Assembly (NCBI GenBank): GCA_021836225.1
Contig: JAKBJA010000025.1
Coordinates: forward strand, 1 to 37,460
Origin: Pseudomonadota bacterium
GTDB taxonomy: Bacteria; Pseudomonadota; Gammaproteobacteria; Burkholderiales; Thiobacillaceae
Length of the DNA: 37,460 nucleotides
Reading direction: 5' to 3'
Part shown: in pieces, positions 11,397 through 37,460 of the stretch
Position numbering within the stretch: position 1 is the first letter of the stretch
Layout of the letters: each line of letters starts with the position of its first letter
The notes under the pieces: model-generated
Told to the model about the DNA's origin: nothing
The model's database searches: none
The model's input: only the letters and a program-made list of their open reading frames with translations
Translations under genes and position numbers: made by a program

Positions 11397-11560
11397 AAGT
11401 GCTGATAACACGATGTAACAGCGGAGACCGCGCCCGAAAGCTGTGGTTTTTTTACGTCCATAGTTCCTTATGGCCGGGTGTGAGGCTAATAAAATAGCGG
11501 CTTGCCGCGAATACGCCCGCCGACTGTTGCCGGTTATCAGCACCCGGCCGCCCACGGCCT
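11397..11560 (+). ncRNA. C4-antisense-RNA-like leader of the antirepressor operon
   Basis: The leader contains ACCGCGCCCGAAAGCTGTGG, a T-run, and CGTCCATAGTTCCTTATGGC, a block I recognise from P1/P7/P4-type prophage immunity leaders (C4 RNA and the region upstream of icd/ant genes). GCTGATAAC at 11401-11409 is exactly complementary to GTTATCAGC at 11533-11541, giving the distal pairing expected of C4, which base-pairs with its target to block ant expression. A hairpin CCCACGGCCTTCGTGGG follows at about 11551-11567. The family match is from memory. Confidence 0.6.
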
Positions 11561-27021: not shown

Positions 27022-29346
27022 ATGGCATCCAACCTGCTCATGATCGGGATCACCCTCCAGCTCTACGACCGGATGACCAGCAATCTGAAGGCCGCCACCG
27101 GCGGCCTGGATAAGCTGCGGGAGAAAGCGGACAAGCTGCGCTCTGTCTCCGTCGGCTTGATGGCGGACGGGTTCCTGGCTGCCGGCGCGGCCGCGGGGCC
27201 GATCAAGGCCTATGCCGACCTGGACGAGGCGCTTACCGGCCTGCAGGTCTCCATGATGCAGAGGGGCGGCAAGGTGGGCGCGGCGTTCGAGCCCCTGAAA
27301 AAGCAAATAGTCGAGCTGGGCAACAAGCTCCCCGGCACCACCGCCGACTACGCCCAACTCGCGGAAACGATGATCAGCCTGGGCACGCCCGCCGAGAAGC
27401 TGCTGGGCGGCGCCCTCGATGCCGCCGCCAACCTGCGGGTGGTCTTGGATATGACCTCGGAGGCGGCCGGCGAAACCGTGGTCAAGCTGCGCGAGGCCTA
27501 CAACCTGAGCGACGGCGATCTGGCCAAGACCGCGGATACCGTGCAACGCGCCAAGTTCGCCTTCGGCATGAAGCCCGAGGAACTGCGCGTGGCGGCATCC
27601 TACCAATCGGCCCAGCTCAACATCCTCCACCTGTCTGGCGCCGAGAACATGAAGAAGATGCTGGTGCTGCAGGGCATGGCCAACCTCAAGGGGTTGGACG
27701 GGTCCAGCTTCGGCACCAATATGGCGATGATGCTGCAACGCCTGGCCACCGGACCGAAGATGCTGGAAATCGCGCGCCGCGGCATGAGGGGCGTCGGCAA
27801 GGACATTCTCGGCAACCTCGGGATCAGCTTCGATTTTTTCGACAAGAAAGGGAATTTCCGCGGCCTCGATGCGATGATCAAGGAATTCGAGAAGTTCAAG
27901 ATCATCCAGGCCAAGTACGGGGACAAAGGGGTGTCCGAAGTGAGCAACGCGCTGTTCGGCATCGAGGCCGCGCGCCCGGCGATGATCCTCGCGCAGTACG
28001 GCGAGGCCGGCTACCAGGCGGCGATGAAGAGTTTCAATGAGCAGGCAGCGCTCCAGGAGCGGATCGACCGCATCCTCCGGACCTGGATCAATGTCTGGCG
28101 CGCCTTCACCGGCACCGTGACCAACCTGATGGCCGCCTTCTCCGGCCCGCTGGTGGAAGGGCTCAAACCGTATATCGACAAGCTCAACGAGCTGACCGGC
28201 GGCCCGCTCATGGAGTTCGTCGATCAGCACAAGACGCTGGCCAAGTGGCTCGGCGCCGCTGTACTGCTCTTCGCCGGCGTCGCCCTCGGACTGGGGGCGC
28301 TGGGTCTCGCCTTCGCCGGGGTGCTGCGCTACGTGGCGCTGGTGGCGCCCATCGTCGGGCCGGTGGTGCGGGTTTTCCGGAGGCTCGTCCCGGTGGTGTC
28401 AGGCCTCGCCTGGATGGTTCGGCTGCTGGCGGTGGCCATCGGCAAGGACCTGTGGAAGGCCGTGCTGATGGTGGCCCGCTTCGCGATGGCGAACCCCCTG
28501 GTTGCCCTGGCCGTCGGGATCGCGGCGGCGGCGATCTGGGTCATCACCCACTGGGATAAGGTCAAGAAGTGGTTCTCCGATTTCTGGGACTGGCTCAAGG
28601 ACGGCATCCGGCAGCTCAATAGCTGGATGCTCGTCCCGCTGGTGGAAGGGCTCAAACTGTATATCGACAAGCTCAACGAGCTGACCGGCGGCCCGCTCAT
28701 GGAGTTCGTCGATCAGCACAAGACGCTGGCCAAGTGGCTCGGCGCCGCTGTACTGCTCTTCGCCGGCGTCGCCCTCGGACTGGGGGCGCTGGGTCTCGCC
28801 TTCGCCGGGGTGCTGCGCTACGTGGCGCTGGTGGCGCCCATCGTCGGGCCGGTGGTGCGGGTTTTCCGGAGGCTCGTCCCGGTGGTGTCAGGCCTCGCCT
28901 GGATGGTTCGGCTGCTGGCGGTGGCCATCGGCAAGGACCTGTGGAAGGCCGTGCTGATGGTGGCCCGCTTCGCGATGGCGAACCCCCTGGTTGCCCTGGC
29001 CGTCGGGATCGCGGCGGCGGCGATCTGGGTCATCACCCACTGGGATAAGGTCAAGAAGTGGTTCTCCGATTTCTGGGACTGGCTCAAGGACGGCATCCGG
29101 CAGCTCAATAGCTGGATGCCGGACTGGATGAGGAAATATACGCTGCCGGGCGCCGCGATCAACCTGGTGGCCAAGACCCTTGGCCCGGAAAAGCCTTCCG
29201 CCGCCGGAGCTGGCAAGGCCCATGTCAGTGGCCAGGTGGACGTGGTGGTGCATGACGACGGGCGTAAGCCAACAGTCAGCGTTAAACGGGCACAGGGCGG
29301 CATGGGAATTACCGCCTACGCCGGCCACACGATGGTGACGCAATGA
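27022..29346 (+). CDS. Tail tape measure protein with internal duplication
   Basis: The 774-aa product has the TP901/Mu gp42 tape measure pattern: LQLYDRMTSNLKAATGGLDK, LREKADKLRSVSVGLMADGF, FEPLKKQIVELGNKLPGTTA, YAQLAETMISLG, followed by hydrophobic helices (AVLLFAGVALGLGALGLAFA). It sets tail length and enters the host membrane. Residues about 376-536 and 539-699 are near-identical because of a 485-bp DNA duplication (28146-28630 and 28635-29119). Only a leaky start context is seen; ATG 27022 opens the conserved N-terminus. Confidence 0.93.
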   Translation: MASNLLMIGITLQLYDRMTSNLKAATGGLDKLREKADKLRSVSVGLMADGFLAAGAAAGPIKAYADLDEALTGLQVSMMQRGGKVGAAFEPLKKQIVELGNKLPGTTADYAQLAETMISLGTPAEKLLGGALDAAANLRVVLDMTSEAAGETVVKLREAYNLSDGDLAKTADTVQRAKFAFGMKPEELRVAASYQSAQLNILHLSGAENMKKMLVLQGMANLKGLDGSSFGTNMAMMLQRLATGPKMLEIARRGMRGVGKDILGNLGISFDFFDKKGNFRGLDAMIKEFEKFKIIQAKYGDKGVSEVSNALFGIEAARPAMILAQYGEAGYQAAMKSFNEQAALQERIDRILRTWINVWRAFTGTVTNLMAAFSGPLVEGLKPYIDKLNELTGGPLMEFVDQHKTLAKWLGAAVLLFAGVALGLGALGLAFAGVLRYVALVAPIVGPVVRVFRRLVPVVSGLAWMVRLLAVAIGKDLWKAVLMVARFAMANPLVALAVGIAAAAIWVITHWDKVKKWFSDFWDWLKDGIRQLNSWMLVPLVEGLKLYIDKLNELTGGPLMEFVDQHKTLAKWLGAAVLLFAGVALGLGALGLAFAGVLRYVALVAPIVGPVVRVFRRLVPVVSGLAWMVRLLAVAIGKDLWKAVLMVARFAMANPLVALAVGIAAAAIWVITHWDKVKKWFSDFWDWLKDGIRQLNSWMPDWMRKYTLPGAAINLVAKTLGPEKPSAAGAGKAHVSGQVDVVVHDDGRKPTVSVKRAQGGMGITAYAGHTMVTQ
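28146..28630. repeat. Tandem duplication copy 1 in tape measure gene
   Basis: It starts CCCGCTGGTGGAAGGGCTCA and ends AGCTGGATGC. Copy 2 lies exactly 489 bp downstream. The only difference I see is C/T at CTCAAACCG versus CTCAAACTG. The 489-bp period is 163 codons, so the frame is kept. Confidence 0.93.
28635..29119. repeat. Tandem duplication copy 2 in tape measure gene
   Basis: Second copy of the 485-bp block, joined to copy 1 by TCGT. The unit encodes the hydrophobic core of the tape measure and the WVITHWDKVKKWFSDFWDWL motif, which therefore occurs twice. Confidence 0.93.
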
Positions 29347-35191: not shown

Positions 35192-36241
35192 ATGGCTGCG
35201 GGCGACATCATTGCAATCCCGGCCATGTCGGCCGGTTATTTCCAGGTGCGGGGCCGCCTGGCAAAAAACAGCGCCGGCGACACCCTGGATATCCCGGCAG
35301 GCATGCTGAATATCGGCGGCAACGGGTTTGGCTATATCCTGAGCGCTGCCACGGCCTGGAACCCCTATCTGGTTGCGAATAACGACGCGAGCTTTTCCGC
35401 CGTCACGCTCGGCGATGACATCTATGTCTACGCTGTCCAGCAGGCGAGCGGCGTGGCCAAGCTGGTGGCCAGCAAAAATGCCACGGCGCCAACCGGCTAT
35501 AACGCCAGCAATTCGCGCAAGATCGGTGGGTTCCATGTCGGCAGAACCCGGCCGATTGCCAATCGTTTCGATGCGGCATTCCTGCCGGCCACCGGTATTG
35601 TGCCCAATAGCGTGTGGGATCTCGCCACCCGTCCCAAGGCAGCCCCCGAGGGCATGGCGGAATTCGCTCCGGGCCGATGGGGAAGCATTTACCTGTTGTC
35701 GCCGATATCTGGCGCATGGCCCAGCGTAGTGTTTGGCAGCAGATACAACGTCAGCCCGGTGCGCTCTACAGGCGGCTACAACGAGCTGGATCTGCACCGT
35801 GGCGTGCATGCTGCCGGGATGCGCGAGCCGACCTTTGAAGAATGGTTGATGATGGCCGACGGCGCGCCTCAAGGGCTGGATGCTGCCAACGATACCGCGT
35901 GGACGCTGACCACCAATACCGGGCCGTGCAATACCGGATTCCTGCAGAAATCAGTCAGCTGCGCCAATTTCGTGGACTGCGTCGGGAATCTCTGGGAGCG
36001 CCTGGGTCACCACTTCGACACTACCACTGGCGCCTATGCATGGGATGCTACGGTGGTCAATACCGGCCAGGACTCAGCGCAAGCGCGCGGCCAGGTGAGC
36101 CATGTTGCCTGGCGCTACGCCGTCGCCAGTGGCGATTGGGTTGAGGGTGTCCACGCGGGCGCTCGCACGCTCAGTTTGAATGCCGCTGCCTGGTATGCCA
36201 ATGGCAATATCGGTGTGCGCGGTGTCAGTGATTCCCTATGA
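35192..36241 (+). CDS. DGR variable protein (C-type lectin/FGE-like), likely receptor-binding tail tip
   Basis: The 349-aa product opens with a tail-associated domain (IIAIPAMSAGYFQVRGRLAK), then SRKIGGFHVGRTRPIANRFD and NSVWDLATRP, as in DGR targets of Mu-like prophages. The C-terminal lectin fold has EPTFEEWLMMADGAP, CVGNLWERLGHHFD, and the variable-type end GQVSHVAWRYAVASGDWVEG, then AGARTLSLNAAAWYANGNIG and VRGVSDSL. In DGRs this end is rewritten from a template through A-specific mutagenesis. ATG 35192 follows GGAGG; the stop overlaps avd by ATGA. The phage lacks the reverse transcriptase, so the sequence may now be fixed. Confidence 0.85.
   Translation: MAAGDIIAIPAMSAGYFQVRGRLAKNSAGDTLDIPAGMLNIGGNGFGYILSAATAWNPYLVANNDASFSAVTLGDDIYVYAVQQASGVAKLVASKNATAPTGYNASNSRKIGGFHVGRTRPIANRFDAAFLPATGIVPNSVWDLATRPKAAPEGMAEFAPGRWGSIYLLSPISGAWPSVVFGSRYNVSPVRSTGGYNELDLHRGVHAAGMREPTFEEWLMMADGAPQGLDAANDTAWTLTTNTGPCNTGFLQKSVSCANFVDCVGNLWERLGHHFDTTTGAYAWDATVVNTGQDSAQARGQVSHVAWRYAVASGDWVEGVHAGARTLSLNAAAWYANGNIGVRGVSDSL
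36084..36239 (+). other. DGR variable region (VR) at the 3' end of the target gene
   Basis: The left limit is set by the 22-nt match to the template-like remnant (36084-36105 versus 36682-36703). The right limit is the end of the gene and is an estimate. The encoded segment has the residue pattern of a DGR lectin face (S, Y, A, D, E, H, T, N and G at exposed positions). Confidence 0.6.
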
Positions 36242-36654
36242 GCTTGGGGCTTGATTTGCCTGGCCACGGCAGTGGCCGGGCTGCGGACCTGCCGCGACTG
36301 AAAGTGCTGGAGTTGTGCGAGCAGTTGATTGTCGAAGCCATGCCTGTTCTCGACAAGATTCCACGCTGCCATCGCTACCGCTATGGCGCGCGGCTGGAAT
36401 CGGCGCTGTTTGCCTTGCCTGAGCTGGTGGTTCAGGCCGCCAGCTCAGGCACCAGGACCAAAGTATTTGCGCTCACGGATCATCTCGAAGTGACCAATGC
36501 CCTATTGCGCATTGGTGCGGAGCGCAAGCTGATCAGCCCTAGATTCGTGGGTCATATCATGAGCGCGCCTACCGAAAGCTCACCGCGAGGTGGACTACTA
36601 CGGCAGGTTGGTGCGATGGCCGCCGCCTGGCGCAAATCGATAAAAGGGCAGTAA
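36238..36654 (+). CDS. avd: Avd-like DGR accessory protein (four-helix bundle)
   Basis: The 138-aa product matches the Avd/four-helix-bundle family: LPRLKVLELCEQLIVEAMPV then IPRCHRYRYGARLESALFAL, TNALLRIGAERKLISPRFVG and the C-terminal GGLLRQVGAMAAAWRKSIKG. The YRYGARL and LLRQVGxMxxAWRKS segments are family signatures. Avd forms a basic pentamer that binds the template RNA and the DGR reverse transcriptase and is required for mutagenic retrohoming. It overlaps the target gene by ATGA. No reverse transcriptase follows, so the protein is an orphan here. Confidence 0.85.
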   Translation: MSLGLDLPGHGSGRAADLPRLKVLELCEQLIVEAMPVLDKIPRCHRYRYGARLESALFALPELVVQAASSGTRTKVFALTDHLEVTNALLRIGAERKLISPRFVGHIMSAPTESSPRGGLLRQVGAMAAAWRKSIKGQ

Positions 36655-36660
36655 TGCAAC

Positions 36661-36754
36661 AAGGGATGGGGTGGGTTTCGACGCGCGGCCAGGTGAACCA
36701 TGTGTGGCGGCTGCGGAAAAAGTTGTTTTCGTTGGGCGAATTTCAATAAATTGT
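36661..36754 (+). pseudogene. Truncated DGR template repeat (TR) remnant
   Basis: Positions 36682-36703 match the target gene 36084-36105 at 21 of 22 bases. The one difference is A (36697) here and G in the gene (AAC versus AGC codon), the direction expected of adenine-specific DGR mutagenesis. After this the match breaks off, except for a shared TGGCG. An ORF of 28 codons keeps the same frame (RGQVNHV-WRL). A normal TR would be about 100 bases or more, followed or preceded by an RT gene. Confidence 0.55.
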
Positions 36755-36783
36755 TGTGCCAAATAAATCGCAAATCAGTGCCA
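36755..36783 (+). other. Candidate phage right end with transposase-site repeats
   Basis: GTGCCAAAT occurs twice, at 36756-36764 and 36778-36786, and AGTGCCA at 36777-36783 is the inverse of TGGCACT at 87. Read inward, both ends continue with a partly shared CGA..TA..T pattern. The end would be ..CA at 36783, giving a phage length of 36.7 kb, normal for Mu-like phages. No 5-bp target duplication is visible, perhaps because the left flank was replaced by the IS630 element. Confidence 0.45.
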
Positions 36784-36817
36784 AATGGCGCGCGCCGGTA
36801 CAATATCAATTGGTTAA

Positions 36818-36967
36818 ACGAGATTCACCCTTTTTTATGAAAAATTCGGGATAGATACACTTGCCGGAACCATTGACGTAGTCGTCTGCAATCCACCCTA
36901 CCGTAAAATGGTGGCCGATGAAGTTTCTGTTTATCGGGAGAGCTTTGCGAATGTTATTGACCTATGA
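36818..36967 (+). pseudogene. Fragment of an N6-adenine-type DNA/RNA methyltransferase
   Basis: A frame without start reads FYEKFGIDTLAGTIDVVVCN then PPYRKMVADEVSVYRESFAN and stops. VVVCNPPY is motif IV (N/D-PPY) of amino-methyltransferases. Neither the SAM-binding N-terminal part nor the rest of the catalytic domain is present. It lies just outside the candidate phage right end, so it is probably the remnant of a gene broken by phage insertion or by a later deletion. Confidence 0.5.
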
Positions 36968-36986
36968 AAGACCTACGGGTATTTAA

Positions 36987-37015
36987 AAAGGGATAGCGGA
37001 GTGCGCTATCCCTTT
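36987..37015 (-). terminator. Rho-independent terminator of tRNA-Asn
   Basis: A perfect 12-bp stem AAAGGGATAGCG / CGCTATCCCTTT with a 5-base loop lies directly downstream of the tRNA on the minus strand and ends there in CCCTTTTTAAAT, giving the U-run on that strand. Confidence 0.9.
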
Positions 37016-37023
37016 GAATTCTC

Positions 37024-37099
37024 TGGCTCCCCGACCTGGACTCGAACCAGGGACCTGCGGATTAACAGTCCGTCGCTCTACCGGCTGAGCTATCGGGGA
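37024..37099 (-). tRNA. tRNA-Asn (anticodon GTT)
   Basis: The reverse complement folds as a 76-nt tRNA with the acceptor stem TCCCCGA/TCGGGGA, D-arm TAGCTCAGCCGGTAGAGC, anticodon loop CTGTTAA with GTT, T-loop GGTTCGAGTCC and an encoded CCA end. It is host-derived and intact. Confidence 0.97.
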
Positions 37100-37224
37100 A
37101 TCGCAAAGTTGCCTATGATAGCGATTTGCGGCCGGACGGTCAACCTGACGGGCTAGAAACGGGTGCGATTCAAACTGATGTGGGGTAATCTGCGGGTTTT
37201 AACCATCGACAAGAGGGGCCGAGC

Positions 37225-37460
37225 ATGTCTGCAAATCACCTGAGTGACGCGGAATTACTGGAAAAGCTGAACGCCAATCCCTTTCTAAGGGAACGCATCG
37301 GGTCTTACTCTTGGCGGTCGAAGACGAGTCGGGCAACTTGAGGGAAGCGGATGCCGCTGAAATGCGCATTATCGATGAGATGCGCCAAATGGGGCAGGAA
37401 TCCCTGGCGGCGTGGGCGCGCCACCAAGTGCACAAGACCGCCCAGGAAGTCAGCCAGGCG
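37225..37460 (+). pseudogene. Frameshifted transposase-like N-terminal region (ISKra4-like?)
   Basis: ATG 37225 opens MSANHLSDAELLEKLNANPF-LRERIG and runs to TGA 37339. In another frame, from about 37305 to the window edge, the protein continues as LLAVEDESGNLREADAAEMR then IIDEMRQMGQESLAAWARHQ. Together they read as one protein of the ISKra4-like transposase type (acidic A-E-x2-I-x-EMRxxGQ-x-L-x-AWA). A single indel near 37300 breaks it, unless it is a programmed shift or a sequencing error. Family is from recall. Confidence 0.5.

What the first reader, a model, noticed from the sequence alone, without database searches (positions are those of the whole stretch)
35192..36783. Diversity-generating retroelement cassette without a reverse transcriptase
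A C-type-lectin-like target gene, a coupled avd gene and a truncated template-like repeat lie at the tail-fibre end of a Mu-like phage, but no reverse transcriptase is found anywhere in the window. In known DGRs, target, avd, TR and RT are contiguous. The RT and most of the TR seem to have been deleted between avd and the phage right end. Either the receptor-binding protein is now frozen, or the template and RT act in trans from elsewhere in the host.
Basis: partly seen in the sequence, partly recalled or inferred. Interest (0 to 1): 0.82.

Follow-up and report, generated by a model that had tools for sequence, protein, structure and literature searches.

The report
Phage receptor-diversifying element with deleted engine
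A Mu-like phage carries a tail receptor gene once rewritten by a diversity-generating retroelement, but a deletion of about 1.26 kb removed the reverse transcriptase and nearly all of the template, so the receptor is most likely frozen in its last variant.

Summary
35192-36241 encodes a homologue of the BPP-1 tropism determinant (Mtd) and 36238-36654 an Avd; no reverse transcriptase (RT) was found in the window. Against intact relatives the gap is one internal deletion of about 1.26 kb with its joint at 36703/36704. Left of the joint are the first 22 nt of the template repeat (TR); right of it the last codons of the RT gene; then the phage right-end repeats. Of 37 fetched relatives with avd and at least 1.5 kb beyond it, 35 have a full RT ORF there.

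The target side looks undamaged: variable repeat (VR), downstream hairpin and an avd under purifying selection. VR differences from the nearest homologue concentrate in template AAY codons. It was a working DGR and, lacking template and enzyme, cannot run alone now. Most likely the receptor is frozen. Rewriting in trans is not excluded, but no TR aligned here could have written this VR. An assembly error cannot be excluded without reads. DGR targets left without RT and TR are already described in Treponema denticola, so this is a well-resolved case of a known kind.

The parts
35192..36241 (+). Mtd-like receptor-binding protein gene, the DGR target
   Evidence: mtd_2nd 3.3e-22; phrog_11262; BPP-1 Mtd structures 7.3e-15
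36084..36232 (+). variable repeat (VR) at the 3' end of the target gene
   Evidence: aligns over 149 nt with the TRs of L031 and L021; VR differences analysed
36258..36281 (+). hairpin behind the VR: 10-bp stem, GGCA loop, 25 nt after the VR end
   Evidence: DNA fold z -2.84; rule in PMC3240598
36238..36654 (+). avd, accessory protein gene, intact and now probably an orphan
   Evidence: phrog_3206 2.5e-11; NF033474 4e-13; dN 0.027, dS 0.67 against L031
36682..36703 (+). stub of the template repeat, its first 22 nt
36703..36704 (.). deletion joint; about 1.26 kb of TR, spacer and RT missing
   Evidence: coordinates in L023, L026 and L021
36704..36749 (+). stub of the RT gene: last codons (WRLRKKLFS, then a divergent tail) and stop
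   Evidence: 30 of 32 nt to the RT ends of L023 and L026, 25 of 28 to L021
36754..36793 (+). phage right-end repeats (paired GTGCCAAA)
   Evidence: 34 of 40 nt to L023; motif pair also in L026

Best explanation
This is a disabled diversity-generating retroelement in a Mu-like prophage. Its ancestor had the order mtd, avd, TR, RT, phage right end. One internal deletion of about 1.26 kb joined TR nucleotide 22 to the last codons of RT. It removed template, spacer and enzyme and spared the target gene, avd, the hairpin and the phage end (shown by alignment). Without template and RT no mutagenic cDNA can be made from this locus (from the established DGR mechanism). The VR is therefore most likely frozen in its last variant and Avd an orphan (inferred). 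The loss is probably recent compared with the split from its sampled relatives (inferred from the intact target-side elements and the agreement of VR and TR stub).
For: Both deletion edges are identified in two relatives, with L021 agreeing on both edges. 35 of 37 relatives with room have a full RT ORF after avd. Window: no RT hit. Relatives are real DGRs: in 47 distinct VR/TR pairs mismatches fall at 531 of 1111 template A and 16 of 5014 other bases. Window VR differs from columns invariant in four relatives' TRs at 7 of 23 A and 4 of 97 other bases; from P0001 at 5 of 8 AAY codons, 3 of 41 other VR codons, 12 of 298 residues outside. VR and TR stub agree at all 18 non-A positions. Hairpin intact. 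avd dN 0.027, dS 0.67.
Against: No reads or second copy of the joint (0 in IMG/VR), so the deletion rests on one contig. The stub is short, so 'recent' is weakly supported, and purifying selection on avd may date from before the loss. Against P0002 the AAY excess is not significant (p 0.11). The own TR is lost, so which VR bases were rewritten cannot be read directly. The host genome was not searched.
Confidence: 0.82

Rival explanations
1. Non-autonomous DGR: the VR is still rewritten in trans by RT and TR of a related prophage in the same cell; Avd and the hairpin are kept because they are used.
For: VR, hairpin and avd are intact, while 0 of 11 mtd loci without avd, RT and TR keep such a hairpin. 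Donor and target on separate plasmids work in a reconstituted BPP-1 DGR (PMC12875486 passages).
Against: No TR that aligns over 100 nt or more matches this VR at its non-A positions: best L021, 14 of 119 differ, against 16 of 5014 for VRs and their own TRs in relatives. The VR shares a base with its own TR stub that none of the relatives' TRs printed has. The hairpin is not universal even in intact loci (40 of 56).
Confidence: 0.08
2. Assembly artefact: the true phage has a full TR and RT and the contig skips them.
For: The VR and TR are near-identical repeats, which disturb assembly, and no second copy of the joint is known.
Against: The joint lies between TR and the RT tail, not between VR and TR, and at most 0-2 nt are shared there, so no long repeat explains a false join.
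Confidence: 0.08
3. Not a DGR: the 22-nt repeat is chance and the target and Avd assignments are mistaken.
For: Avd matches fall below two curated cut-offs.
Against: The repeat lies where relatives' TRs begin and exceeds all 150 shuffles. Homologues of both proteins sit in DGRs with adenine-specific VR/TR differences.
Confidence: 0.01

Closest known systems
DGR of Bordetella phage BPP-1 (mtd, avd, TR, brt)
   Same: Target homologous to Mtd, Avd-type gene behind it, VR at the 3' end of the target, hairpin with GRNA loop behind the VR.
   Different: TR reduced to 22 nt and RT to its last codons. The BPP-1 phages share only 28-30% identity with the target; that BPP-1 is a podovirus and not Mu-like is recalled.
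DGR of Mu-like Chromohalobacter phage YPCBV-1 (OP380511)
   Same: Same gene order at the right end of a Mu-like phage; target 48.5% identical.
   Different: YPCBV-1 has TR and RT; the window lacks them.
Leftover DGR targets without RT and TR in Treponema denticola (PMC4891356)
   Same: Target genes persist after loss of the core: 8 of the 17 isolates in its Table 1 have 0 TR and 0 RT (passages).
   Different: Bacterial isolates, with loss inferred from trees and similarity of the targets; here a phage, with both deletion edges resolved and avd kept.

Membership tests
Diversity-generating retroelement (active) | DGR-type reverse transcriptase | tested here: not met
   No RT in the window; only its last codons remain
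Diversity-generating retroelement (active) | full template repeat | tested here: not met
   22 nt remain; no other copy of the VR in the window
Diversity-generating retroelement (active) | target gene with a VR at its 3' end | tested here: met
   Mtd homologue; VR aligned to relatives' TRs
Diversity-generating retroelement (active) | Avd accessory protein | tested here: met
   phrog_3206, NF033474 and PF22296 hits, the latter two below curated cut-offs; orthologues next to RTs
Diversity-generating retroelement (active) | VR/TR differences at template adenines | tested here: inconclusive
   Own stub: a single mismatch, at A. Relatives clearly meet it; window VR against relatives' TRs agrees
Diversity-generating retroelement (active) | hairpin with GRNA loop behind the VR (phage DGRs) | tested here: met
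   36258-36281; rule in PMC3240598
Diversity-generating retroelement (active) | ongoing mutagenic homing in the population | not testable with these tools
   No reads available
Mu-like transposable phage | Mu-type transposase, Mu portal and Mu gp48-type baseplate genes | tested here: met
   Mu-transpos_C 4.1e-15, Portal_Mu 2.2e-101, Phage_Mu_Gp48 3.8e-33

The most novel reading that the evidence does not exclude
A non-autonomous DGR: the phage has shed RT and template but keeps target, hairpin and Avd, so that any intact related prophage in the same cell rewrites its receptor for it, as a short transposon relies on a complete one. The separate RT damage in its nearest relatives L019/L031 would then be a second case.
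Probability: 0.08. Interest if true: 0.75.

Novelty: new member of a known kind. Interest (0 to 1): 0.36.

Why it matters
A large DGR survey starts from the RT (PMC8144416 passages: RT detection is step one, and remote targets are said to be missed), so elements that lost the RT are invisible to it. A case with both deletion edges resolved shows what a disabled DGR looks like and suggests searching from the target side (Mtd plus hairpin). Together with the RT stub in the nearest relatives, it makes two questions testable with read sets: how often DGRs die in Mu-like phages, and whether orphan targets are rewritten in trans.

Tried and rejected
Own-genome search for an RT or a second TR: not possible, no genome is held.

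Another copy of the joint: 0 matches in IMG/VR. The other collections were not scanned for it.

Near-DNA search of the phage collection with 14000-37460: the 20 rows listed of 30 share only a 116-nt portal stretch. Plasmids: no match to the target. Avd profile against the PDB: no match.

Avd scan of IMG/VR: 10 loci, all on contigs already fetched (L092-L098 are re-cut copies), so it gave no new avd locus without RT.

Deletion through the word TGGCG shared by TR and RT tail: rejected, because the joint lies before that word.

Rows dropped or to be read with care; the L027 row was out of register and was dropped (one search gives 16 of 115), and the VR translation there is in the wrong frame (right frame); the sums over 59 loci (A 666 of 1393; other bases 28 of 6351) include duplicate contigs and L041, whose second copy lies upstream and is not at a TR position; one search repeats the count without L041 and with identical pairs once (47 pairs: A 531 of 1111; other bases 16 of 5014); 19 of the 78 sequences tested, window included, had no second copy; 24 of 61 sequences with avd (window included) have less than 1.5 kb beyond it and are outside the 35-of-37 count; 31 of the 37 have avd DNA not seen in an earlier locus; the 56 'other' loci include duplicates and L069 (no avd or RT found, 1476 nt beyond mtd); the 11 RT-less loci hold 8 distinct mtd sequences; the 16 without a hairpin include the close relatives L021, L022, L023 and L026; only alignments of 100 nt or more were kept (46 rows, the best 14 printed).

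Papers: listings showed no title or abstract start reporting loss of a DGR RT in a phage; that is no proof of absence in print. Terms for loss were not found in PMC6642488 and PMC10743442 and found no relevant passage in PMC8144416.

Structure prediction and fold search were not used: sequence profiles already reached Mtd.

Full report
What is there. The window is a Mu-like prophage (Mu-type transposase, portal and gp48 domains) and its right end is the tail-fibre end. The gene at 35192-36241 is a homologue of the BPP-1 major tropism determinant. The overlapping gene at 36238-36654 is an Avd; two curated libraries place it below their cut-offs, but its orthologues stand next to RTs.

The comparison. 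I fetched 17 loci from genome records, 73 from IMG/VR and one phage record, and searched them and the window with the RT of Chromohalobacter phage YPCBV-1 and with an HMM made from 40 RTs. The window has no hit. Of 61 sequences with avd (window included), 37 have at least 1.5 kb beyond it, and 35 of these 37 have a full-length RT ORF there. The exceptions are L019, whose RT is a stub, and L089, whose target gene is broken as well. The window has only 809 nt beyond avd, but the phage right-end repeats lie inside that stretch, so the RT is not merely cut off by the contig edge.

The deletion. Window 36641-36703 aligns with the end of avd and the start of the TR in L023 and L026 (55 of 63 nt). 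Window 36705-36736 aligns at 30 of 32 nt with the last codons of their RT genes, and 36754-36793 at 34 of 40 nt with the right-end repeats of L023, likewise in L026. L021 agrees on both edges (54 of 60 and 25 of 28 nt) but has no match to the right-end repeats. From these coordinates the missing stretch is 1255 bp by L023 and L026 and 1259 bp by L021. At most 0-2 nt are shared at the joint.

What is left still looks like a target. The VR aligns with relatives' TRs over 149 nt. Behind it, at 36258-36281, lies a hairpin with a 10-bp stem and a GGCA loop. It fits the rule published for phage DGRs: GC-rich stem of 7-10 bp, GRNA loop, 4-34 bp behind the VR (PMC3240598 passages). Among 12 relatives tested, 8 have a stem of 7 bp or more with a GRNA loop, several on other stem sequences; L021 has only 5 bp, and L022, L023 and L026 have none. 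By a strict test the hairpin is present in 40 of 56 other related loci, in 0 of 11 loci (8 distinct) that have mtd but no avd or RT, and in 16 of 3000 random segments. avd differs from that of L031 with dN 0.027 and dS 0.67.

It was a DGR. In 47 distinct VR/TR pairs of relatives, mismatches fall on 531 of 1111 template adenines and on 16 of 5014 other bases. The window VR differs from columns invariant in four relatives' TRs at 7 of 23 adenines and 4 of 97 other bases. Against its nearest homologue P0001, 5 of 8 AAY codons differ, 3 of 41 other VR codons and 12 of 298 residues outside the VR (Fisher p 0.0014 within the VR). Of the five homologues tested, four give p below 0.03; P0002 does not (3 of 8 and 5 of 41, p 0.11). 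The TR stub agrees with the VR at all 18 non-A positions, including a T that none of the relatives' TRs printed has there. This suggests that the VR was last written from this very TR, but 22 nt is little.

How it works now. In BPP-1 the spacer behind the TR recruits the RT-Avd complex, mutated cDNA is made from the TR RNA, and it enters the VR helped by the VR's 3' end and a stem-loop (PMC12875486 passages). Here TR, spacer and RT are gone, so the locus cannot do this alone. The simplest outcome is a receptor frozen in its last state with an idle avd. Rewriting in trans is possible in principle, since that paper's system keeps donor and target on separate plasmids. But none of the TRs aligned could have written this VR: the closest, L021, differs at 14 of 119 non-adenine positions.

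What is known. Targets left behind after loss of RT and TR are described in Treponema denticola (PMC4891356 passages). A Mu-like phage with DGR genes is known (YPCBV-1, PMC9769972 passages). What is added here is a phage case with both deletion edges resolved and with Avd and hairpin kept. The paper searches (listings) showed no published phage case. A survey that starts from the RT would not see one (PMC8144416 passages).

The nearest relatives. L019 and L031, identical over 5422 nt, keep a full TR that differs from their VR at 13 of 25 adenines and 0 of 124 other bases. Their RT stops after about 132 codons, followed by what I read as integron gene cassettes with an integron integrase further on. 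RT loss has thus occurred at least twice in this small group, by different events, unless one of the contigs is misassembled.

Limits. No reads, no host genome, no second copy of the joint. Assembly error, recency and activity in trans remain to be tested with reads.

Noticed in passing
L019 4889-9161 (L031 7807-8340): In the closest relative the DGR RT ends after about 132 codons, followed by repeats that look like integron attC sites (by eye; no Rfam match), a Dam-type methyltransferase ORF, an integron integrase (TIGR02249, 1.3e-142) and a resolvase ORF.
   Followed up: partly
window 28146-29119: A 489-bp tandem duplication (2 copies, 99%) inside the tape-measure gene 27022-29346, in frame.
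   Followed up: no
window 11472-11557: Match to Rfam sRNA-Xcc1 (RF02221, 56.5 bits, gathering 53) in front of an antirepressor-like ORF (the ORF's name is my reading, not tested). The family's link to integrons is recalled.
   Followed up: partly
L006, L009, L011, L014, L041, L047, L064, L065, L071, L081, L083: Mtd homologues with 6 kb of sequence beyond them but no avd, RT or hairpin found; 10 of 11 have no second VR copy, and L041 has one upstream: probably older losses or targets never tied to a DGR.
   Followed up: partly
window 36800-37460 and 1-60: Right flank: a short open fragment with an NPPY motif, tRNA-Asn at 37024-37099 and a broken, transposase-like ORF; the left edge holds the start of a minus-strand ORF that looks like a transposase (both names by eye).
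   Followed up: no
L089 1-1333: A scrambled DGR: end of one mtd, part of an avd, then an mtd with its middle missing.
   Followed up: no
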